From the IMG/VR virus record IMGVR_UViG_3300003267_000132, positions 1 to 64,000 of that record: a stretch of DNA of 64,000 nt. One strand, written 5' to 3'. The stretch is from a virus. Below are positions 12,803 to 64,000 of this stretch, piece by piece (the first letter of the stretch is position 1; each line of letters starts with the position of its first letter). The translations under genes were made by a program, and so were the position numbers. The notes under the pieces were generated by a model. The model searched no databases, was not told the DNA's origin, and saw only the letters and a program-made list of their open reading frames with translations.

Positions 12803-13932
12803 AGGGCACCACCGTAGGCCCCGGTCACCACGGCTTCGCGGATCGCGACCGCCGCGCGCTGCGCCGCGCGCCCGTCGCGGGTCCATGGCGGGAACACCGA
12901 GTCGACCATGCGTTGGCGACCCAGCCGGTGCTCCGGGTAGTCGGCCAGCGCCGTCGAGATAGCGGCAGCCAGGTCGGCGGGGTCTTCGCAGTGGGGCACA
13001 TCGACCGTCCAGTCCCAGAAGCGCCCGCCATGGTGGACGTCGCGTCGGTACCACGGCGCGGACAGCCAGACAATGGGCTTGCCGGTTACCGCGAACTCGA
13101 CCCCGGTGCTGCTGTTGTCGATGACGTAGCAGTCGGCCCGATCCATGACAGCTTCGAAGGACGGTTCGAACTCGATCCCGTTCATCTCCCACCAGCGTCG
13201 CAGCCGGTCACCCCATCGTGGGTGTGCGTGACCGAACAGCCGGAAGTGCTGCGCCAAGCCGGGCACGTGCCCCCGGAAGTGCTCCCATGCCGAGGTCGTC
13301 TCGTTGATGAGCCGGATATCGGCATGGAAGGACACGCAGACAAGGGGAGGGTCGAACCCTCGCGCAGAAGGTTTGGCGACGATCGACGGAGACGTCCGAC
13401 CCTCCGTGGCGGACCCGGGGAGTCGAACCCGCGGTGTCTCCGGCTTATGAGGCCAGCGTGGAACCGTTTCACCCGTCCGCCTGTCGTCGACCTTAGTCCA
13501 GCGGTCAAGGCGTGGCGACCCGATGGTGATTGCCGGTGCGTCGGGGTAGCGGTCGCGCCAGCGGCGGGCGATCTGCTCGTTGGGGCACAGAAACAGGATG
13601 CAGTCTTCGTGTTCGACCGACCCTGCGTAGGACGGATGGGCGCAGCCCACCGGGTCGCCGTCGTAGGTCTGGCCTGCGCCGTGCTCGACGTAGATGAACG
13701 GGCGGCGGCACGCTCGCGAGTCCTGGAAACTGGCGACGACGATTGGCTGACCGTTGACGGTGGGGTGGCCATGGCGCACGTGTTCGGGGTCGACGCCGCG
13801 ACTGGTCGCGTAGAGCATCAGGTCCTGCCGCACCCACCACGTTCCGCGTTCTTCGGGGTCGAGCGCGAACCAGATGTCGAACAAGTGGTCGGCGTACTGC
13901 GACTCGCTGGCCGAGAAGTCAAGCGGCAGCAC
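12799..13932 (-). CDS. GT-B glycosyltransferase / CDP-glycerol glycerophosphotransferase-like
   Basis: 377 aa from a GTG that overlaps the end of the large glycosyltransferase gene. Motifs match the glycerophosphotransferase / GT-B fold: YVEHGAGQTYDG (about 82-93), ITIGSPRLDRW (136-146), VCVSFHAD (about 199) and DNSSTGVEFAVTGKPIVWL (about 272-290), which binds the nucleotide-activated donor. Between the two Rossmann halves there is an unusually long linker (about 145-195). Residues 151-175 of it coincide with a tRNA-like sequence. It belongs to the glycan island and probably transfers a sugar or polyol phosphate to a glycan or virion protein (inference). Confidence 0.65.
   Translation of the reverse strand: MLPLDFSASESQYADHLFDIWFALDPEERGTWWVRQDLMLYATSRGVDPEHVRHGHPTVNGQPIVVASFQDSRACRRPFIYVEHGAGQTYDGDPVGCAHPSYAGSVEHEDCILFLCPNEQIARRWRDRYPDAPAITIGSPRLDRWTKVDDRRTGETVPRWPHKPETPRVRLPGSATEGRTSPSIVAKPSARGFDPPLVCVSFHADIRLINETTSAWEHFRGHVPGLAQHFRLFGHAHPRWGDRLRRWWEMNGIEFEPSFEAVMDRADCYVIDNSSTGVEFAVTGKPIVWLSAPWYRRDVHHGGRFWDWTVDVPHCEDPADLAAAISTALADYPEHRLGRQRMVDSVFPPWTRDGRAAQRAAVAIREAVVTGAYGGAL
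13407..13481 (-). tRNA. tRNA-Met-like sequence (anticodon CAT), imperfect T arm
   Basis: Reading the minus strand, a 7-bp acceptor stem is perfect (GGCGGAC with GTCCGCC). The D stem pairs 3 of 4 (GTGA/CCAC) with GG in the loop. The anticodon stem CTGGC/GCCGG pairs fully around CTCATAA (anticodon CAT). A TTCGA T-loop is present. The T stem pairs only about 4 bases and needs a bulge or an 8-base loop, so it may be degenerate. It lies wholly inside the reading frame of a glycosyltransferase gene, in a variable linker. It could be a decayed tRNA, a real overlapping tRNA or chance. Confidence 0.4.
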
Positions 13933-16705
13933 GGGTGGCGAGCCGCGCGAAGAGTTCTTCGTAGTGCGGGATGAGCACGTCCCAGGAGATGCCCGCCGCA
14001 ATCCTGTCGGCCTCGGCTGACAGCGATGCGACTTCGGCTGGTCGCGCCGCGAGTTCGTCCATCCGGCGCGCCAGGTCGCGCGGGGACACGTCATGCAGCG
14101 GGATCGGACCGACGAGTGAGTTGAACTCGCGGCGCGACTGGCAAGGCAGGCGCATCCCCGGCGGGAGAATCTGGCGTTGCGGCTCGGCGTCGGGCATGAG
14201 CACGACCAACCCCGACGACAGCGCCTCGTTCATGGGGAGGCTCTGCCCGCCATAGCGGCGGGGAAGCACCAGGACGTCGGTGTCGTCGTAGAGCTGCCAG
14301 TAGTCGGGCATGTCGCCAATGTGGACCTCCAGGTCGATGTGCGCTCCGTAGCGCATCGGTGCCCGGCACGGCTGCATGGATCGGACGACGACGTGCATCG
14401 GTTGGGAGACGAAGCCAAGTGCTTCCCACAGCACTCTGGTCCCGGCGCGGTCATGCGCGGCGGGGTGCCCGATGACGTGCAGGAAGGTCTTCGCCTCGGT
14501 CCGCTGCCGATAGGGCAGCCGCTGCCGGTCGACGCCATGCGGAAGCAGGACCGGGTCGGGCAGTCGCTCCATGTTCCACGTCGTCGGCACCGCCAGCACA
14601 TCGGGGATCGGTGCCCAGTCCGGGGCGAGGATGTGATGGGTGAACTCGTAGTTCGCCACAAGAATCGTGTGAATTTTCATATCGGCGCACAGCCGAGTGA
14701 ACCAGGGCAGGTAGAACGTCTCGCACCCGAGCACCACGTCGAGATCCGCGAGCCAGTTGCGGACGTCGACCTCAAAGATGCGGTCATGGCGCGCCACCGC
14801 CAGCGTGGCCGGGTTGTACTCCCGCCAGCTACAAGGGTACGGGGACAGATCCCCCATGTCGATCCCGAACACCTTGGCCGGTTGCAGGTGGCGCGCTAAC
14901 TCCGACGTCTGCACCGCCAGCCCGCGTCGGTCGGCGCGTGCACCGAAGAGACCGACCCGGATGGCGCGCGATATTTCGCGCGGCGCGACGTAGGCGGCGG
15001 GCACGTCGCGGTGGGGATTGGGGGCACCGAACGGGACCATCGGCGTGTCGTAGGCCCACCGCATCTCGTACTTGGACTCACCCTCGCGCCCGTCGAGATG
15101 CGTCGACCGCTTCATGTCGCCCGACGGCGCGTAGATCCAGGTGCGGAACCGCTCCCAGCCTTCGTAGCCGTACTCCTGCCAGTGAGTGACGAGCACCCCG
15201 TACATGGAGTCCTCGATCATCGTCCGCGCTTCTCGCCCGAAGAACCGGGTGAGCATGTCGCGGTAGAAGTCGGTTCGCGCCAGGTGTGGTCGCTGGCTCC
15301 ACTGCACGGTGCGCAGTAACGGCGCTCCCGCGACGTCATGCGGCTCGGCGTCGAGAACGAGATGGCGATGCGGCTCCAGGATCGACGCTTCGTGATGGAG
15401 CCGGATCAGGTTGCAGGTGCCTTCCTGTAACCCGTCGAGCAGCGATTGCCACGGCAACTGCTCACCGAACAGCGGCGTGTCGTGTTCGACGAACAGGATG
15501 GCCGGGGTGCGCACCAGATCGAGCACCCGCCGGGTCATCTCGGCCTGATGCAGATGCTCGTCGTGCAGGACCGGCAGGACGTTGCGCCAGCGGTTGTTGG
15601 CCAGCCAGAGCAACCGCCGCGTGTACTCCGCGTAGTCGGCCCGCCGCCCTTCCTGTTCGGCGCGAACCCCGTCGACCATGACCAGGATCTCGGCGCGCGG
15701 CAGGCGTTCCCGCACCGACGCGACGGTCTGTTCAATGACCGAGGTGTCCGGGTGCGACGGAATCGGGGACGTCGGGATCAGAACGGTGATCCGGTCGTCG
15801 ACAGTCGGTTCGCTGTCGTCGGTTTGTCGGACGCTCACCAGGTCGTCGCGCAGCGCGTATGCCAGTTCCCGCTTGTGGTGCTGCCACCACGCGAAGATGC
15901 GGTTGGCGTTGGCGGGCCACTCGCGGACGAGTTCGTCGATGGCCTGGTCGATGTCGGTCCATGACCGCAGGACAGGCAACGGATGCTCGTCACCGAACAA
16001 GGTCTGCCAGTACTCGGGCGACTCGACGATGGGGATGCACCCGGCTTCCAGAGCTTCGAAGAGCCGGAAGGTGTCCGGGGTCTGCGGCCCCGCGGGACAG
16101 GGAGCGACCTTCGCCGCGACCATGCCCGCCGCGTACTCCGCGATGTCGACCCCTTCCATGAACCCCGCGGTTTCGATGACGCGCCCGTCGCCACGCCTAC
16201 GCCGTGAGAGCGCACCGGCAAGTTCCTGGCGGGACCGATGCGAGATCTGACCCGCGAAGAACCAGTTGAGCGGCTTGTCCAGGGGGTCCGCTGGCAGATG
16301 CTCGCGGTAGGACCACGCCCAACCGTCCCCCAGGGGCCTGTCTGTGCCCGTCACGCTGCCCGCGACCGGCGTCTGCACCCAGCGACGCATCTGCACGTTC
16401 GCCAGCTTGTGGCGGGGAAATACGCCCTCCTCGTCACCGGTCAGGATCACCAGCGCCCACCCCAACCGGTAGAGCCATGTCGCGATTCGGTCGGCGTCTT
16501 GGACATGCCAGCGCGCCGGGATGACGACGACCGCACCGGGAGCGTCCGCGGGGAGCGCGTCAAAGCCACCTTCGTGGTGGCGGAAGGTCGGGTGTCCCGG
16601 CGCGCGCCAGAGGGTGCCCGCCATGAGTTCTTCCAGCAGACACTGATCGGCATACCCGCGGGCACGGATGTCGTCGTGCAGCGAGAGCCAGAGGACGTCG
16701 ATCAT
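13919..16705 (-). CDS. Three-domain glycosyltransferase
   Basis: 928 aa from an ATG overlapping the methyltransferase stop (ATGA). The N-terminal third (about 1-310) resembles exostosin/GT47-like enzymes, with TFRLFEALEAGCIPIVESPEYW as the donor-site signature. The middle (about 315-600) is GT2-like, with ITVLIPTSPIPSHPDT, RAEILVMVDG and LFVEHDTPLF. The C-terminal third (about 605-928) is a GT-B/GT4 domain with VGLFGARADRRG, LLPHGVDRQRLP, DVLVLPRRYGGQSLPMNEA and a SWDVLIPHYEELF end. Such a chain suggests stepwise synthesis of a short glycan by one polypeptide, placed in the structural region beside methyltransferases. Confidence 0.8.
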   Translation of the reverse strand: MIDVLWLSLHDDIRARGYADQCLLEELMAGTLWRAPGHPTFRHHEGGFDALPADAPGAVVVIPARWHVQDADRIATWLYRLGWALVILTGDEEGVFPRHKLANVQMRRWVQTPVAGSVTGTDRPLGDGWAWSYREHLPADPLDKPLNWFFAGQISHRSRQELAGALSRRRRGDGRVIETAGFMEGVDIAEYAAGMVAAKVAPCPAGPQTPDTFRLFEALEAGCIPIVESPEYWQTLFGDEHPLPVLRSWTDIDQAIDELVREWPANANRIFAWWQHHKRELAYALRDDLVSVRQTDDSEPTVDDRITVLIPTSPIPSHPDTSVIEQTVASVRERLPRAEILVMVDGVRAEQEGRRADYAEYTRRLLWLANNRWRNVLPVLHDEHLHQAEMTRRVLDLVRTPAILFVEHDTPLFGEQLPWQSLLDGLQEGTCNLIRLHHEASILEPHRHLVLDAEPHDVAGAPLLRTVQWSQRPHLARTDFYRDMLTRFFGREARTMIEDSMYGVLVTHWQEYGYEGWERFRTWIYAPSGDMKRSTHLDGREGESKYEMRWAYDTPMVPFGAPNPHRDVPAAYVAPREISRAIRVGLFGARADRRGLAVQTSELARHLQPAKVFGIDMGDLSPYPCSWREYNPATLAVARHDRIFEVDVRNWLADLDVVLGCETFYLPWFTRLCADMKIHTILVANYEFTHHILAPDWAPIPDVLAVPTTWNMERLPDPVLLPHGVDRQRLPYRQRTEAKTFLHVIGHPAAHDRAGTRVLWEALGFVSQPMHVVVRSMQPCRAPMRYGAHIDLEVHIGDMPDYWQLYDDTDVLVLPRRYGGQSLPMNEALSSGLVVLMPDAEPQRQILPPGMRLPCQSRREFNSLVGPIPLHDVSPRDLARRMDELAARPAEVASLSAEADRIAAGISWDVLIPHYEELFARLATRAAA

Positions 16706-54633: not shown

Positions 54634-55215
54634 CTACTCGCCCGTCGCCAGCGCCAGGAACTCGCTCCGGCAGCGGGCGTCTTCGTAGAAGCACCCGCGC
54701 AGGGTGCTGGTCACCGTGGGTGCGATGCGGCGCACGCCGCGGACCGCCATGCAGGAGTGGGTCGCCTTGACGACGACTCCGACACCCGCGGCGTCGACGT
54801 GGGTCGCCAGCGCATCCGCGATCTGGACCGTCATCCGCTCCTGCACCTGGAGCCGGTGGGCGAAGACGTCGACCAGCCGCGCCAGCTTCGACAGCCCGAC
54901 GACGCGACCGCGCGGCACGTACCCGATGGCGGCCGTGCCCGTGAAGGGCAGAACGTGATGTTCGCAAAGGCTGGCGAACTCGATGCCCTGGACGACGACC
55001 ATCTCGTCGTACTCGCACTCGAACGTCGCACCCAGGACGTCGGCGGGGTCCTGGAGCATCCCCTTGGTCATTTCCCGCCAGGCCCGCGCCACTCGCTCGG
55101 GGGTGTCGCGCAGGCCGTCGCGCTTCGGGTCTTCCCCGATGGAGTGCAGCAGATCGATCACGGCAGCTTCGGCGAAGGGGTAGTCGAATCGGTCCTCTGC
55201 GGGGCTGGCGGTCAC
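54634..55215 (-). CDS. folE: GTP cyclohydrolase I
   Basis: 193 aa from a GTG. EGHDRDTPERVARAWREM-like LRDTPERVARAWREMTKG, the zinc motif SLCEHHVLPF (C84, H86-H87), YVPRGRVVGLSKLARLVD and SCMAVRGV (C155) match type I FolE. It converts GTP to 7,8-dihydroneopterin triphosphate, the first step to 7-cyano-7-deazaguanine. Found with queD, queE, queC and a DpdA homologue in the same window. Confidence 0.93.
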   Translation of the reverse strand: MTASPAEDRFDYPFAEAAVIDLLHSIGEDPKRDGLRDTPERVARAWREMTKGMLQDPADVLGATFECEYDEMVVVQGIEFASLCEHHVLPFTGTAAIGYVPRGRVVGLSKLARLVDVFAHRLQVQERMTVQIADALATHVDAAGVGVVVKATHSCMAVRGVRRIAPTVTSTLRGCFYEDARCRSEFLALATGE

Positions 55216-56767: not shown

Positions 56768-57394
56768 TCAGACGCCCAGCGTTGGCGACCACAGATGCCG
56801 GTTCGTGTCGAGGTGCTGCAACCAGCCGATCAGCTTGGGCAGATTCACGTCGGGACCGAATCCGGTGTAGTTGCCGTCCGCCGAGTCGAACAGTGAAAGC
56901 GACGCGGCGCGCAGGCGGCGAAACGAGTTGACCCGGCCCATGTGAACCCACTTGTTCCGTTCGCACGCTTGGTCGGCCAGCCGATAGGCGTCTTCGGACA
57001 GCTTCCAACGGGTCGTCCCGCCGATGAACAAGCAGTCGAACTCGTCCCAGGGTGGGTCAGTCAGTCCGTCCTGAGCGACGAGCGCGGCGCGGAACCCGTG
57101 GTCGCGGAGCAGCGGCAAGACTGGTTCGGCGACCGTCCAGGTGGCGGCGGGGTCAGCCAGCCGGTCGGGGGCGGTGATGAACAGCGCATCGCGTGGGAAC
57201 GGGTCGAGCCACGCAAGATACTGCCCCAGGTCGAAGGAGTCCGGTTTGGTGAAGCAGCCAGTGTCCGCCGCCCACGCCGTGTACGTCGTCGTGTCGGGTC
57301 TGCCCCAACGGGCCGGGGTCAGCATCACGCCGATCCCGTGCCGACGGTACAGAGCGGCGCGGTCTTCGGTCGGCGGCGTCGCGAGATAGATCAT
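56768..57394 (-). CDS. dpdA: DpdA-like DNA guanine transglycosylase (TGT family)
   Basis: 208 aa from MIYLATPPTEDRAAL, overlapping the queC stop. The TGT-like phage DpdA group is recognised by ATPP, GVMLTPARWG, WAADTGCF with Asp44 as the likely nucleophile or general base, VAQDG (108-110) and IGGTTRWK (124-131), HMGRVNS (151-157) and SADGN. It would exchange selected guanines in phage DNA for the 7-deazaguanine base made by folE, queD, queE and queC, protecting DNA from host restriction. The base inserted cannot be known from sequence alone. Confidence 0.8.
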   Translation of the reverse strand: MIYLATPPTEDRAALYRRHGIGVMLTPARWGRPDTTTYTAWAADTGCFTKPDSFDLGQYLAWLDPFPRDALFITAPDRLADPAATWTVAEPVLPLLRDHGFRAALVAQDGLTDPPWDEFDCLFIGGTTRWKLSEDAYRLADQACERNKWVHMGRVNSFRRLRAASLSLFDSADGNYTGFGPDVNLPKLIGWLQHLDTNRHLWSPTLGV

Positions 57395-57951
57395 GCGAGC
57401 GCCCGCGCACGCTCGGTGCAGGCCAGACAGGTCAGGCACGGCGAAGTGCCGTGCCCGTAACACGACCAGGTCTGGTCAAGCGGCGCTCCCAGCGCGCGAC
57501 CAAGCTCGACGACCTTGCGCTTGCCGAAGTCCAGGAACGGCGTCCACAACCACACCTTTCCGTCGGTCGCGACCCGCAGGACTTCGTTCATCGCTTCGAT
57601 GAACTTCGGGCGGCAGTCGGGGAACAGCGCGGCGTCGTCGGCGTGGGGTGAGAAGCCGACCGCGACCGCGCCGACCTGCAAGGCATGCGCCGCGGCAAGA
57701 GAGACCAGGATGGCGTTGCGGTTCGGAAATATCAGGTCGTCGGGCACCCCGAACGTGCCGCTGACTTTGACTTCGTCGTACCAGACCCCCGCTTCCTTGG
57801 CGATGACGTAGGCGGCTTCCAACTCCTTCACATGGGGCTGTCCGTAGTCGACACCGAACGCCTGCACGGCATCGAACTGCGTGCGCGCCAGGTACAGCGC
57901 CACCGTCGAGTCGATGCCGCCGCTGAACAGGATCAGGCACTTAGACGCCAC
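57391..57951 (-). CDS. queC: 7-cyano-7-deazaguanine synthase QueC
   Basis: 186 aa, GTG start. The PP-loop FSGGIDSTVALYLA (9-22), FPNRNAIL for the PGRN-type motif, VGFSPHADD and the zinc motif C164 with C172, C175 and C178 (PCLTCLACTER). It turns 7-carboxy-7-deazaguanine to preQ0 using ATP and ammonia. Overlaps queE by 11 bases and the transglycosylase by 4. Confidence 0.92.
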   Translation of the reverse strand: MASKCLILFSGGIDSTVALYLARTQFDAVQAFGVDYGQPHVKELEAAYVIAKEAGVWYDEVKVSGTFGVPDDLIFPNRNAILVSLAAAHALQVGAVAVGFSPHADDAALFPDCRPKFIEAMNEVLRVATDGKVWLWTPFLDFGKRKVVELGRALGAPLDQTWSCYGHGTSPCLTCLACTERARALA

Positions 57952-58666
57952 GGCGATCTCCCCACAACATGACGTGCTGACGTCCCGACAGATTCCATCC
58001 TCGCCCGATCACCCACGGCGCGAGTTCCTTCGCGCGTGCCGTAAGCGTGTCCGCGTCGGTCCCGGCGGGCATCACCCACACAGTCTCCGGGCACAAGCCA
58101 TGCACCTTCGCGAGCACCGCAATCTCGTCAAGGTCGGACACATCTGCGGCGACGAACTTGAAGCATGCCTTCCCGCGGGTAGCCAGACTTACGAATCGGT
58201 CCAATGCCTCGGGGTTGTAGCGCGCATGCGGATCGCATCCGGAGTTCGACAGCTTCGGTGACACGTTGAACCGAGTCACCCAAGGCACCAAGTTAGGCCC
58301 TGGGATTCGGGTCCCGTTCGTTTCGATCTCGACTTCGGTGAACGCCGCCAGACGAGGGGCGAGTTCCAGCAGGGCGTTCTGCTGGATCATCGGTTCCCCT
58401 CCGGTGATGACGACCAGCCCTACCGGGCGGACCTGGCTGACGACTTCGTCGACGGTCATGCCATGCAGTTCTTTGGCGGGGTCCTGCGCAGGCCCGATCT
58501 TGCCCCGCCAGTCCCACGTGTACGGCGTGTCGCACTTCCACCCCGCGCCACTACCGGATCCACAGTCGAGGTTGCAGCGACCCAGCCGCAGGAAGAACGC
58601 GCGGCGACCCGCTGACGGGCCTTCGCCCTGGATCGAGTCGAACATCTCATTGACGACCAGCTTCAT
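57941..58666 (-). CDS. queE: 7-carboxy-7-deazaguanine synthase QueE (radical SAM)
   Basis: 241 aa. The radical SAM cluster Cys are C31 and C35 (CNLDC) and C45 (KCDTPYTWDW), with nine residues between the second and third, instead of the usual CX3CX2C. ITGGEPMIQ (88-95) is the GGEP SAM-binding motif. The later RFNVSPKLSNSG is the strand that closes the barrel. It rearranges carboxy-tetrahydropterin to 7-carboxy-7-deazaguanine. Overlaps the 86-aa gene. Confidence 0.9.
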   Translation of the reverse strand: MKLVVNEMFDSIQGEGPSAGRRAFFLRLGRCNLDCGSGSGAGWKCDTPYTWDWRGKIGPAQDPAKELHGMTVDEVVSQVRPVGLVVITGGEPMIQQNALLELAPRLAAFTEVEIETNGTRIPGPNLVPWVTRFNVSPKLSNSGCDPHARYNPEALDRFVSLATRGKACFKFVAADVSDLDEIAVLAKVHGLCPETVWVMPAGTDADTLTARAKELAPWVIGRGWNLSGRQHVMLWGDRRGV

Positions 58667-58923
58667 GCGTCCGCCTTGTCGAGCAGGAGCGAAAGCGCCT
58701 GGATCAGTTCGGTATGGACCGTGGCCCCGAGCGGCAGGTTGGCCAGTTCGCCGTACTCGCGGACCTGCCACACGACCCGGGGTGTCGTGCGCAGCGACGG
58801 CGAGGTGTTGCGGTCCTTGGCCTCTCGGCGCGCCGCGGCGCGTGACTGCATCGGCTCGACCTCCAGTACCTTGCCAGTGTCGAGGTTGACTTGCAGCAGC
58901 ACGGCACCGGGCAGATCGGTCAC
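58663..58923 (-). CDS. Unknown 86-aa protein within the preQ0 operon
   Basis: A beta-strand N-terminal part (GAVLLQVNLDTGKVLEVEPM) and a helical C-terminal half (ELIQALSLLLDKAD). No known motif. It lies between queD and queE with 4-base overlaps on both sides, so it is translated in the same operon. It might bind deazaguanine-pathway enzymes or phage DNA; this is an inference from position. Confidence 0.6.
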   Translation of the reverse strand: MTDLPGAVLLQVNLDTGKVLEVEPMQSRAAARREAKDRNTSPSLRTTPRVVWQVREYGELANLPLGATVHTELIQALSLLLDKADA

Positions 58924-59357
58924 GGTCGATACGCCGCGCTATTGACGGCGGTCTCCTGAATGTGCACCGACTCGACGAACGCTTCGGCGACGACCAAGCC
59001 GTTGTCGGTCATGCGGTACAGCATCTCGTCTACCCGGTCGTAGAGCAACCGCGCCAGCCCCTCGGTCGTCGGGTCAACGTGGAGCCGGGTGACAGACGAC
59101 CCATGCTGCTCCAGCGGGTCAGCGACCGGGTCGAGTTCATTGAGCAGGATGCTGTGATCCCACTCGGAGTCGAGCATTCCCCGGACCTCTCGCTTGAGCG
59201 GTCCGAAGTCCACGATCATTCCGTACCTGTCGACATCGGGTGCCGCGACGGTGACTTCCGCCAGGAACGAGTGGCCGTGGACGTTGTGGCACTTCCCGCT
59301 GGTCAGCCACAGCCGGTGCGCCGACTCGAAATTGTGCTTGATCGACACCCGGTACAT
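58920..59357 (-). CDS. queD: 6-carboxy-5,6,7,8-tetrahydropterin synthase QueD
   Basis: 145 aa. H14 (FESAHRL), C23 and H27, H29 (CHNVHGHSF) with the zinc ligands, D67 and H68 (WDHSILLN), PTTEGLA with E99, and ESVHIQET near the C-terminus. It makes carboxy-tetrahydropterin from dihydroneopterin triphosphate. First gene of the queD to dpdA operon, with the recurrent element just upstream. Confidence 0.92.
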   Translation of the reverse strand: MYRVSIKHNFESAHRLWLTSGKCHNVHGHSFLAEVTVAAPDVDRYGMIVDFGPLKREVRGMLDSEWDHSILLNELDPVADPLEQHGSSVTRLHVDPTTEGLARLLYDRVDEMLYRMTDNGLVVAEAFVESVHIQETAVNSAAYRP

Positions 59358-61412: not shown

Positions 61413-61633
61413 CAGCGCCTCCTGATCTTGCGGCGCGCAGGTCGGCTGTAACCACCCTTGGGTGGCGGACCGACCCCGACCCACACGGTGTTGAACGCGA
61501 CCGGCTCACCGGGGTGCTCCTGCTGGTAGTGGCCGTCGGTCAGATCGATCTGCTCGGCGTCGAAGAACTCCATGCCGCAGTGAGAACAAACCACCTTCCA
61601 GTTCTCACCGTTGGCCGGGTTCATGTCGCGCAT
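61412..61633 (-). CDS. C2H2-like zinc-finger protein
   Basis: 73 aa. CSHCGMEFFDAEQIDLTDGH (then YQQEH) has a CxxC and a His-rich end, like a small finger. The C-terminus is basic (YSRPARRKIRRR), suggesting nucleic-acid binding. Coupled to its neighbours. Confidence 0.6.
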   Translation of the reverse strand: MRDMNPANGENWKVVCSHCGMEFFDAEQIDLTDGHYQQEHPGEPVAFNTVWVGVGPPPKGGYSRPARRKIRRR

Positions 61634-62049
61634 CAGTCGCTCGCCCATCCGAAGAAGATGAACTTGCCGCCCGGTGCTGCGAAGCACCCCGCCGGTCCCC
61701 ACTTGTCGTCGACCTTGCGCCCGATGTCGAGCGCCGCCTGCCATTGCGGCTCGGTCAGTTCCACGTAGTCGTAGTCGAGCCACCGCTTCTTGGCGTCGTA
61801 CGGCTCCTGCTGGTCGGCTGCCCAGTCCCAGGTCTCGCCGAGGATGTTGCAGCACACGTAGGCGTACTTCATCAGCAGGTTCGGCGGGATCCCCGATGGC
61901 GGGGTCAGCACGACGAACGAGTCCTTCTCCGCGATCGTCCCGGTGTAGCCGCCGTGGCCATGGTCGTACTGCGCCCGTTCGACTGCATCGTGGAAGGCCT
62001 GCTGCGCGCTGGCCCCCTCCTGCACGGTGACGAAGATCGATGATCCCAT
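61633..62049 (-). CDS. Hypothetical actinophage protein
   Basis: 138 aa from the ATG at 62049. MGSSIFVTVQEGASAQQAFH, ERAQYDHGHGGYTGTIAEKD and KWGPAGCFAAPGGKFIFFGW; the first two are typical of a conserved actinophage protein without known function. No catalytic motif seen. Confidence 0.65.
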   Translation of the reverse strand: MGSSIFVTVQEGASAQQAFHDAVERAQYDHGHGGYTGTIAEKDSFVVLTPPSGIPPNLLMKYAYVCCNILGETWDWAADQQEPYDAKKRWLDYDYVELTEPQWQAALDIGRKVDDKWGPAGCFAAPGGKFIFFGWASD

Positions 62050-62461: not shown

Positions 62462-62491
62462 ATGCTAATGCGGCTTATGCCGTCCGTTCAA
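62462..62491 (-). promoter_or_regulatory. Promoter-like site with recurrent element, copy 7
   Basis: Minus-strand TTGAAC (62486-62491) with a TTAGCA or TAGCAT hexamer 17-18 bases downstream; plus-strand gctaatgcggctta (62464-62477). It overlaps the 3' end of the HAD-QueC gene and lies before the gene at 62428. Confidence 0.5.
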
Positions 62492-63648
62492 GTGGTGGAG
62501 CGCAGAGATTCGATGACCGCCAGCGTCGACCGGCAGCGCGCCGGGCTGTACCGCGAGTAGTCACCGGTGTCGAGCGCGGAACGCATCAGCGGCTCGTACT
62601 TCTCGATGTGCGGGGTCCAGTCGGCACCGTCGAACTCTGGCGTCGGGACGCCGCAGGCGGTGAAGGCGACGAACTTGCGGAAGCACGTCTGGCACTTCCC
62701 GCACGCCCGCGCGAACTCGTCGAAGCACGACTTGGTGTTGCGCAGCAGGTCGATCTGGCCGCGCGCCTGCCACCAACGGACCAAGTCGACCTTGTCCATG
62801 CCGCGCAACGGCGACATCAGATGAACGTCGTAGCCGAGCACGGTCAGCAGATGCTGCGTCGTCAGCATGAAGCGGGCGCTCTTGTCGCCCCCGATCGCGG
62901 GCGTCTCCCCGGCCAGGTTCCCCAACCAGAGTTCGCCCCACCACCCAGCCGCTTGCATGTACCGCGCCACCGTGAAGATCACGGTCGCGTTGCGGCCCGG
63001 AATGATGTGTTTGAAGCGGCGGGGCAAGTGCGTCCCGGTCAGCCACACCGGCTGCCTGCACAGTGACGACGCTGCTTCCAGTTCGGCGGCGGCATACTCC
63101 TGACCGACGTCGACATAGACCGGGGCCGGGTCCAGTCCCGCCTCGATGGCCATCCACCACAGCGTCGTGGAGTCCATGCCCCCCGTCACCGGAATGACGA
63201 CGCGGTACTTGTCGGCGCGACGCCGTGGCACCAGGTCGGGGTTTTCCGGGACGGCGTCCTGGTCGATTGCCCAGTGGCTTGCCATCGTTCCGTCACCGAG
63301 CGCACCCAGCGGGTCGTCGTGTTCCTTCCATGCGATCAGCGCGTCGAGTGCTTCCAGGCAGGGGAACAGACCGGCGTCGTCGATGAACAGATCGGCGGGC
63401 GGCTTCGCTCCGCACGCGACCTGGTGGAAGTGGAGTTGCCGTTCCCGGCACCACTGTTCAATGGCGGGGCCATGCGACACCGGGCGGGACGAGTGGACGA
63501 CGACGTTCCACCCGCGTGCCGCGGCGTCGTTGACCAGATCGATCATGTCCCAGTTGGCTTGACCCGGTTCAGTCGACCGCGTGTCGCGACAGAGCGTCCC
63601 GTCGAAGTCCACTGCCAGCGTGCGGCGGTCGTAGTGGTTGCGGATCAT
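62488..63648 (-). CDS. HAD phosphatase fused to a QueC-like PP-loop ATPase
   Basis: 386 aa from MIRNHYDRR, ATG overlapping the previous stop. Residues 1-110 are an HAD-type phosphatase: DFDGTL (D14, D16), HSSRP (S53/S54), K82, and DLFIDD (D86, D90) as motif IV. Residues 145-386 are a QueC-like synthase: IPVTGGMDSTTLWW (155-160), GQEYAAAELEAA, PGRNATVIF, and Cys C308 with C316, C319 and C322 (CGKCQTC). It is distinct from queC at 57.4 kb. It may modify or recycle a deazaguanine intermediate or nucleotide; unknown. Confidence 0.8.
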   Translation of the reverse strand: MIRNHYDRRTLAVDFDGTLCRDTRSTEPGQANWDMIDLVNDAAARGWNVVVHSSRPVSHGPAIEQWCRERQLHFHQVACGAKPPADLFIDDAGLFPCLEALDALIAWKEHDDPLGALGDGTMASHWAIDQDAVPENPDLVPRRRADKYRVVIPVTGGMDSTTLWWMAIEAGLDPAPVYVDVGQEYAAAELEAASSLCRQPVWLTGTHLPRRFKHIIPGRNATVIFTVARYMQAAGWWGELWLGNLAGETPAIGGDKSARFMLTTQHLLTVLGYDVHLMSPLRGMDKVDLVRWWQARGQIDLLRNTKSCFDEFARACGKCQTCFRKFVAFTACGVPTPEFDGADWTPHIEKYEPLMRSALDTGDYSRYSPARCRSTLAVIESLRSTT

Positions 63649-63713
63649 TCCCATGACCAATGACCCTTCGGATGCCGCGGCAGGCGGGCACAGGGGCGCA
63701 CAGGCGGTGTCAT
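63645..63713 (-). CDS. Coupled 22-aa ORF
   Basis: A 22-codon frame, MTPPVRPCARLPRHPKGHWSWE, whose ATG overlaps the preceding stop and whose stop overlaps the next ATG. Might encode a real microprotein or only serve translational coupling to the HAD-QueC gene. Confidence 0.35.
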   Translation of the reverse strand: MTPPVRPCARLPRHPKGHWSWE

Positions 63714-63991
63714 TCCTGCTCGGCCGCGACCTTGGACGCCTGGACGAGATGCGGGGGATATCCGTCGACGATGTAGATCTTCGGGCCGGTGAGGTACCGC
63801 ATCGTGTCGGAGTAGAACGTCGACAGGTACAGCTTCAGACCCTGCGCCGCCAGCCCCAGGTCCGGGGTTTCGGTGTGGACCCCGCGGCTCCCCCGCGAGT
63901 CGGCCAGATATACGCGCAGGTGATCCGGCTCGACCATGCCACGCGGCGGGCCGATGGGACCATGCCGTCGCCGCAACCACTGTTCGAACAT
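63710..63991 (-). CDS. Hypothetical protein at window edge
   Basis: 93 aa, first ATG at 63991 near the right edge, so an upstream start cannot be excluded. Segments RVYLADSRGSRG and SDTMRYLTGPKIYIVDGYPPH suggest an alpha/beta fold. No family recognised. Confidence 0.5.
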   Translation of the reverse strand: MFEQWLRRRHGPIGPPRGMVEPDHLRVYLADSRGSRGVHTETPDLGLAAQGLKLYLSTFYSDTMRYLTGPKIYIVDGYPPHLVQASKVAAEQE

Positions 63992-64000
63992 CAGCCAGGC

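What the first reader, a model, noticed from the sequence alone, without database searches (positions are those of the whole stretch)
56768..59357. Compact queD-X-queE-queC-dpdA DNA-modification operon with folE nearby
folE, queD, queE, queC and a DpdA-like gene together predict 7-deazaguanine in phage DNA, probably preQ0. No Gat-QueC fusion or QueF-like amidotransferase or reductase was seen, so the extra HAD-QueC could be the step that diversifies the base. The known phage Rosebush-type pathway supports this, but the actual base is unproven.
Basis: partly seen in the sequence, partly recalled or inferred. Interest (0 to 1): 0.72.

Follow-up and report, generated by a model that had tools for sequence, protein, structure and literature searches.

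The report
Remodelled HAD-QueC in deazaguanine phage
This phage carries the genes to replace guanine in its DNA with a 7-deazaguanine, and it also carries a second, phosphatase-fused version of the QueC enzyme that belongs to a phage subfamily with an altered active site I could not find described, so these phages may make a DNA base that nobody has looked for yet.

Summary
The operon is real: queD-X-queE-queC plus a TGT-like gene, four junctions overlapping by 4-11 bases, with folE nearby. One assignment changes. The 208-aa 'DpdA' at 56768-57394 is a small TGT-like paralog. The canonical phage DpdA (343 aa) starts beyond the window edge (record 63710-64741), between a ParB-like gene and HAD-QueC (62488-63654).

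HAD-QueC is the surprise. It belongs to a QueC subfamily ('DK-QueC'; 45 phage sequences in the residue count) that keeps the ATP loop, PxRN and zinc cysteines but has lost both substrate tyrosines that are essential in E. coli QueC, and the YPDC cysteine; canonical QueC, Gat-QueC and Cap9 keep the tyrosines. DK-QueC sits in DpdA/QueD/QueE/FolE operons and is the only QueC in almost every other record. A HAD phosphatase is fused or nearby in 13/47 DK loci versus 0/73 canonical loci (p = 1.6e-6); inositol-phosphate synthase accompanies 6/47 versus 0/73.

Best reading: DpdA puts 7-deazaguanine into the DNA, and HAD-QueC performs a non-canonical ATP-dependent step on the base's C7 group. The product is unknown. 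New variant of a known kind; isolated Menderavirus phages make it directly testable.

The parts
62488..63654 (-). HAD-QueC: N-terminal HAD phosphatase domain (about 1-140, DFDGTL/HSSR/KPPADLFIDD motifs) fused to a divergent 'DK' QueC domain (about 147-388; TGGMDS loop, IPGRN, GGDKSARF, four zinc cysteines)
   Evidence: Pfam QueC 1.3e-13; NCBIfam BT0820-type HAD phosphatase 1.2e-4; AlphaFold model, QueC part mostly pLDDT >90; PDB matches QatC Z 18.5, Cap9 Z 17.2, QueC Z 16.5; residue comparison
63710..64000 (-). C-terminal part (inside the window) of the canonical phage DpdA; the whole gene is 63710-64741 of the 66,303-base record, 343 aa
   Evidence: phrog_887 queuine tRNA-ribosyltransferase 4.3e-48; invariant DSGA, D69, H146 (HGFG), D165-SS in alignment A8; ORF
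   Evidence: phrog_15826 4e-50; hhalign to DpdA 94.4% E 8.6e-8; AlphaFold TIM barrel pLDDT 93.5, TGT Z about 15
57391..57951 (-). QueC, canonical motifs (SGGIDS, VDYGQPHVKE, FPNRN, FPDC, zinc cysteines): CDG to preQ0
   Evidence: Pfam QueC 1.4e-45; motif table
57941..58666 (-). QueE, radical-SAM 7-carboxy-7-deazaguanine synthase
   Evidence: phrog_2076 8.8e-51; several NCBIfam QueE models to 1.6e-17, below cut-off
58663..58923 (-). ORF X, 86 aa, unknown; overlaps queD and queE by 4 bases
   Evidence: no Pfam or PHROG match
58920..59357 (-). QueD, 6-carboxytetrahydropterin synthase
   Evidence: Pfam PTPS 1.5e-26; NCBIfam QueD 2.3e-22, below cut-off
54634..55215 (-). FolE, GTP cyclohydrolase I
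   Evidence: Pfam 1.3e-69
61633..62049 (-). 138-aa protein starting MGSS, third gene downstream of HAD-QueC; considered as a possible N-terminal-glycine substrate, not supported
   Evidence: relatives begin MGA in Gordonia, Caulobacter and Rhodococcus phages; no MG-start partner recurs beside DK-QueC

Best explanation
The phage makes CDG and preQ0 (FolE-QueD-QueE-QueC) and inserts 7-deazaguanine into its DNA with the canonical DpdA encoded next to HAD-QueC; the small TGT-like protein may insert a second base. HAD-QueC is not a spare preQ0 synthase. Its QueC domain uses ATP to activate the C7 group (carboxylate or amide) of a 7-deazaguanine, either free or already in DNA, in a remodelled pocket, and delivers a product other than preQ0, for instance by joining it to a nucleophile other than ammonia. 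The small HAD domain removes a phosphate from that co-substrate or product. Shown here: gene content, gene order, residue losses and gene linkage. Inferred: DNA as target, ATP activation of C7, phosphatase role, identity of the base.
For: Complete CDG/preQ0 gene set plus canonical DpdA. ParB-DpdA-[HAD-]QueC order as in Sonali, Finch and relatives L022-L025. DK-QueC: ATP loop, PxRN, Lys and four zinc Cys kept in all or nearly all of 45 sequences, but canonical Y36 (100% of 74 canonical sequences), Y110 (91% Y, 9% F) and C113 (100%) lost, D112 kept, Lys in 93% at the Cys position; the matching E. coli residues Y35 and Y131 are essential when changed to Ala (PMC13329287); Gat-QueC keeps both tyrosines and Cap9 is reported to keep the YxDC motif. 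Canonical QueC forms one side of a 100/99 branch, DK-QueC the other. HAD fused or within 2.5 kb in 13/47 DK versus 0/73 canonical loci, p = 1.6e-6. DK-QueC near DpdA in 30/44 and near some que/dpd gene in 40/44 other loci. This phage also has an intact QueC, whereas 17 other DK-QueC records searched whole hold a single QueC gene and one holds two divergent ones, which argues against simple redundancy here.
Against: In most relatives DK-QueC is the only QueC beside FolE/QueD/QueE, so it may simply make ADG or preQ0 with a different pocket. Two relatives (L025, L070) have no QueD but a YhhQ-type transporter, so CDG is not clearly the substrate in all. The HAD domain is modelled poorly (block-mean pLDDT 76 or less). 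Three of the four nearest relatives of the window (L022-L024) have neither HAD nor Ino1 nearby, and the fourth (L025) has Ino1 only. No biochemistry exists.
Confidence: 0.5

Rival explanations
1. DK-QueC is an ordinary QueC in function: it converts CDG to ADG/preQ0 with a diverged pocket and hands it to DpdA; in this phage it is a duplicate of QueC, and HAD has a housekeeping role.
For: It is the sole QueC in 17 of 18 DK-QueC records searched whole and sits with FolE, QueD, QueE and DpdA in many loci, e.g. L019, L071, L042. 9g Gat-QueC makes preQ0 that is channelled to DpdA and not to tRNA (PMC6884629), a precedent for a specialised QueC.
Against: Loss of both tyrosines whose equivalents are essential in E. 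coli QueC, which Gat-QueC keeps and Cap9 is reported to keep; recurrent HAD linkage absent from canonical QueC; this phage keeps an intact QueC.
Confidence: 0.27
2. HAD-QueC is a protein deazaguanylase like Cap9/QatC, joining 7-deazaguanine to the N-terminal glycine of a partner (for example the nearby MGSS protein).
For: Best structural matches are QatC (Z 18.5) and Cap9 (Z 17.2); an MGSS-start protein lies three genes downstream.
Against: Sequence profile prefers QueC over Cap9 and QatC; no MG-start neighbour recurs across 47 DK loci; MGSS relatives occur in Gordonia and Caulobacter phages that were not among the listed QueC-type hits; neighbours are DNA-modification genes.
Confidence: 0.08
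3. DK-QueC with Ino1 and HAD builds a cyclitol-conjugated 7-deazaguanine: Ino1 makes inositol-3-phosphate, HAD dephosphorylates it, DK-QueC joins it to the base; the window phage takes inositol phosphate from its host.
For: Ino1 beside DK-QueC in 6/47 versus 0/73 canonical loci (p = 0.003), 5 of the 6 in one Menderavirus-type clade with HAD and the sixth in L025; Ino1 identity by Pfam/NCBIfam.
Against: No Ino1 in this record; most DK-QueC loci lack Ino1; QueC chemistry normally uses nitrogen nucleophiles; the phage's host is unknown.
Confidence: 0.1
4. HAD-QueC is a counter-defence factor that consumes or sequesters CDG, starving type IV CBASS of its modifying base.
For: Cap9 uses CDG for immunity; QueC-like fold closest to immune QueC proteins.
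Against: The phage itself makes CDG; conserved operon position directly after DpdA; HAD linkage unexplained.
Confidence: 0.05

Closest known systems
[quoted passage not shown] PMC6884629)
   Same: Same biosynthetic genes and a canonical DpdA; no Gat-QueC, no QueF.
   Different: Here a second, divergent QueC fused to a HAD and a second, small TGT-like protein are present.
Canonical QueC (PF06508 cluster 1; PMC13329287)
   Same: PP-loop SGGxDS, PxRN, Lys, Asp of the YPDC motif, four zinc cysteines.
   Different: DK-QueC lacks Y of YxQxHxxE, Y and C of YPDC, and has a C-terminal extension; linked to HAD.
Gat-QueC of phage 9g type
   Same: QueC domain fused to another enzyme domain, next to DpdA pathway genes.
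   Different: Partner is a HAD phosphatase, not a glutamine amidotransferase; Gat-QueC keeps both tyrosines.
Cap9 (type IV CBASS) and QatC (qatABCD)
   Same: Closest solved folds; QatC also lost the base-recognition residues.
   Different: No CD-NTase, QatA/B/D neighbours; Asp kept, Lys instead of Cys; phage DNA-modification context.
Menderavirus que cluster (PMC9025141)
   Same: Separate HAD + DK-QueC + TGT-like + QueE + FolE, QueD elsewhere; HAD labelled polynucleotide kinase.
   Different: HAD not fused; carries Ino1; no canonical QueC found in the one Menderavirus record searched whole.

Membership tests
phage DpdA (canonical) | TGT catalytic Asp in DSG motif, second Asp, DpdA histidine | tested here: met
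   63710-64741 ORF: D33SGA, D69, H146, D165SS invariant in A8; phrog_887 4e-48. Activity not tested.
phage DpdA (the 56768-57394 protein) | homology to DpdA/TGT with conserved Asp and His | tested here: inconclusive
   Profile match 94.4%, E 8.6e-8, DTG and His aligned; D44, D77, H151, D173 invariant in 43 relatives; but unrelated TIM barrels score as high as TGT and most of 80 viral loci show no que or dpd neighbour.
DpdA: TGT Pfam domain | PF01702 match | tested here: inconclusive
   No match in the record for either protein; the model also misses the canonical phage DpdA, so it is insensitive.
canonical QueC (57391-57951) | SGGxDS, YxQxHxxE, VPxRN, YPDC, zinc Cys | tested here: met
   SGGIDS, YGQPHVKE, FPNRN, FPDC, four Cys; Phe for Tyr is partly active in E. 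coli.
canonical QueC (HAD-QueC) | YxQxHxxE and YPDC substrate motifs | tested here: not met
   VGQEY and GGDK instead.
canonical QueC (HAD-QueC) | PP-loop and zinc site | tested here: met
   TGGMDS, PGRN, C-x7-C-x2-C-x2-C.
Gat-QueC | N-terminal class II glutamine amidotransferase | tested here: not met
   N-terminal domain carries HAD motifs and its hits are HAD families.
Cap9 | H(x)4YxDCxxxF motif and adjacent CD-NTase | tested here: not met
   Motif absent; neighbours are ParB, DpdA and small unknown ORFs.
QatC | Thr/Thr substrate residues and qatA/B/D neighbours | tested here: not met
   Asp-Lys at that site; no ATPase or TatD match among the adjacent genes scanned.
QatC | fold | tested here: met
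   Z 18.5, 255 residues, rmsd 5.0.
HAD phosphatase | DxD, Ser/Thr, Lys, acidic pair motifs | tested here: met
   DFDGTL, HSSR, AKPPADL, IDD; BT0820 family 1.2e-4, below the curated cut-off; fold not tested (low pLDDT).
7-deazaguanine-modified phage | modified base in virion DNA | not testable with these tools
   needs LC-MS.

The most novel reading that the evidence does not exclude
DK-QueC plus HAD (plus Ino1 in some phages) is a phage-specific branch of deazaguanine chemistry that builds a not yet described C7-conjugated 7-deazaguanine in DNA, possibly on DNA after DpdA insertion.
Probability: 0.3. Interest if true: 0.85.

Novelty: new variant of a known kind. Interest (0 to 1): 0.6.

Why it matters
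Phage 7-deazaguanine bases are anti-restriction devices. A widespread QueC subfamily with an altered substrate pocket and a recurrent phosphatase partner points to a base that targeted LC-MS panels would miss. It also extends the theme that the QueC fold is repurposed (Cap9, QatC) from bacterial immunity to the phage side. Cultured phages (Menderavirus, Bacteroides phage BS162P1) carry the gene, so the question can be settled with one nucleoside analysis.

Tried and rejected
(1) Small TGT as the DpdA of the pathway: weakened once the canonical DpdA was found past the window edge. (2) Protein-deazaguanylation with an adjacent MG-start partner: no recurrent MG-start neighbour in 47 DK loci. (3) Inositol route in this phage: no Ino1 in the record. 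(4) QueF or QueF-L in the record: only folE itself matched. (5) HAD-QueC relatives by single-sequence scan of viral contigs: none; among named phages at E 1e-5: none; a profile was needed. (7) DpdL and the four 2023 phage bases: the paper is not in the library, so I could not check whether DpdL is related to DK-QueC; that would change the naming. (8) Pfam TGT model on the record: no hit, insensitive. (9) pdb_via for the small TGT cannot separate TGT from other TIM barrels. The 'HAD nearby' counts use a motif pattern applied equally to both sets; ORFs were called mechanically.

Full report
What is there. The window is bases 1-64000 of a 66,303-base viral record of a tailed phage (portal, major head protein, tape measure, terminase). 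On the minus strand lie queD (58920-59357), an 86-aa ORF X, queE, queC and a TGT-like gene (56768-57394); the junctions overlap by 4, 4, 11 and 4 bases, and folE is at 54634-55215. Families were confirmed by Pfam, PHROGs and NCBIfam. No tRNA gene, no QueF beyond folE itself, no Ino1.

Correction of the dpdA call. The fifth gene belongs to a family of roughly 200-230 aa (phrog_15826) that is annotated 'DpdA-like' in actinophages. In Sonali, SHIN8 and Vibrio phage R29Z a relative occurs in the same record as other que genes, and in Sonali and SHIN8 also with a separate gene annotated as TGT. Of 80 viral loci with this family only five (plus Sonali itself) show que neighbours, but in L131, L178 and L180 it abuts or lies near queC and no canonical DpdA is found in those records. 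It is a TGT-superfamily protein by profile with a confident TIM-barrel model; whether it transglycosylates DNA is unknown. The canonical DpdA is the ORF cut by the window end, record 63710-64741, preceded by a ParB-like gene and followed 55 bases later by HAD-QueC. Sonali and Finch have ParB-DpdA-QueC in the same order, so HAD-QueC stands where QueC stands in those phages.

HAD-QueC. The N-terminal domain has HAD motifs and weak HAD family matches; the C-terminal domain is QueC-like. Its best single-sequence PDB match is Cap9; a profile of the subfamily prefers QueC, then Cap9, then QatC; the AlphaFold model is closest to QatC (Z 18.5), Cap9 (17.2) and QueC (16.5). The HAD part of the model is of low confidence.

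A phage QueC subfamily. From Menderavirus and faecal-phage relatives a profile found 80 viral loci. After removing near-copies, 47 carry a D[K/Q] motif where canonical QueC has YPDC. In 45 of them aligned with 74 canonical sequences, the ATP loop, PxRN, the conserved Lys and the zinc cysteines are kept, while canonical Y36, Y110 and C113 are lost; D112 is invariant in both and Lys follows it in 93% of DK sequences. Published mutagenesis shows the equivalents Y35 and Y131 of E. coli QueC to be essential when changed to Ala, Y131F being partly active (PMC13329287). Gat-QueC keeps both tyrosines; Cap9 is reported to keep the YxDC motif. In a maximum-likelihood tree canonical QueC is one side of a 100/99 branch; on the other side lie a large group, a five-member group with the window protein, and the Menderavirus group (midpoint root for drawing only).

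Genomic linkage. DK-QueC lies near DpdA in 30 of 44 and near at least one of DpdA, QueD, QueE, FolE in 40 of 44 other loci. A HAD gene is fused or within 2.5 kb in 13/47 DK loci and 0/73 canonical viral QueC loci (Fisher p = 1.6e-6); Ino1 in 6/47 versus 0/73 (p = 0.003). HAD-bearing loci are scattered over all three tree groups. The p-values treat near-copy-filtered loci as independent, which they are not fully. 17 of 18 DK-QueC records searched whole contain a single QueC gene; one has two divergent ones. The window phage, with an intact QueC and a DK-QueC, is the exception. L025 and L070 have no QueD but carry a YhhQ-type transporter (L025 by Pfam; L070 by eye), and L025 also a weak QueF-like ORF and Ino1; CDG is therefore not certain as substrate everywhere. 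L023 and L024 have methyltransferase-like ORFs beside DK-QueC (for L023, by eye, for L024).

Mechanism. Established knowledge: QueC adenylates CDG, adds ammonia to give ADG, then dehydrates it to preQ0. DK-QueC keeps the ATP and zinc machinery, has lost the aromatic residues that stack on and face the base, and recurs with a phosphatase. I infer an ATP-dependent reaction on the C7 group with a different product or a macromolecular substrate, the HAD removing a phosphate. The product is unknown. The main rival is an ordinary ADG/preQ0 synthase with a drifted pocket; its weak points are the lost essential residues and the intact QueC in this phage.

Known or new. The PF06508 survey (PMC13329287) treats ten large clusters covering 98.5% of sequences; its main text does not mention HAD, and the clusters it details do not match this one. 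The paper on four further phage 7-deazaguanines, which (from my own knowledge) names DpdL, DpdM and DpdN, is not in the library, so overlap with DpdL could not be checked. I rate this as a new variant of a known kind.

Noticed in passing
61633-62049: 138-aa MGSS-start protein with a conserved HGxGYTGTIAEK stretch; relatives start MGA in Gordonia, Caulobacter and Rhodococcus phages; function unknown.
   Followed up: partly
L018 4642-5762 (Stenotrophomonas phage Bhz51): Menderavirus 'polynucleotide kinase' next to QueC is a HAD of the DK-QueC module, beside an inositol-3-phosphate synthase gene.
   Followed up: partly
L020 4677-6875 (MT835482); L080 8686-10881: L020: DpdA with an intein-like insertion of about 430 aa between its TGT motifs. 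L080 has a hit of similar length, not inspected.
   Followed up: no
L025 7028-10802: Operon DpdA, DK-QueC, Ino1, weak QueF-like ORF, YhhQ-type transporter; no QueD found in the 54-kb record.
   Followed up: partly
L070 6752-11038: Transporter-like ORF, DK-QueC, HAD, DpdA and two ParB-like genes in a row (transporter and ParB by eye).
   Followed up: no
L102-L181: The small TGT-like family is common in viral contigs and mostly occurs without any deazaguanine gene nearby.
   Followed up: partly
L046, L047, L054, L061, L062, L064, L259: Another viral QueC-like group with [YF]WDG in place of YPDC and no que or dpd neighbours.
   Followed up: no
L026 7890-9621: Two divergent QueC-like genes in tandem in a 115-kb phage record.
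   Followed up: no
L023 7243-7782; L024 3627-4274: Methyltransferase-like ORFs directly beside DK-QueC (weak Pfam match for L023; L024 by eye).
   Followed up: no
58663-58923: ORF X between queD and queE, no family match, overlapping both neighbours by 4 bases.
   Followed up: no
13919-16705: 928-aa protein with a weak glycosyltransferase match in its C-terminal third.
   Followed up: no
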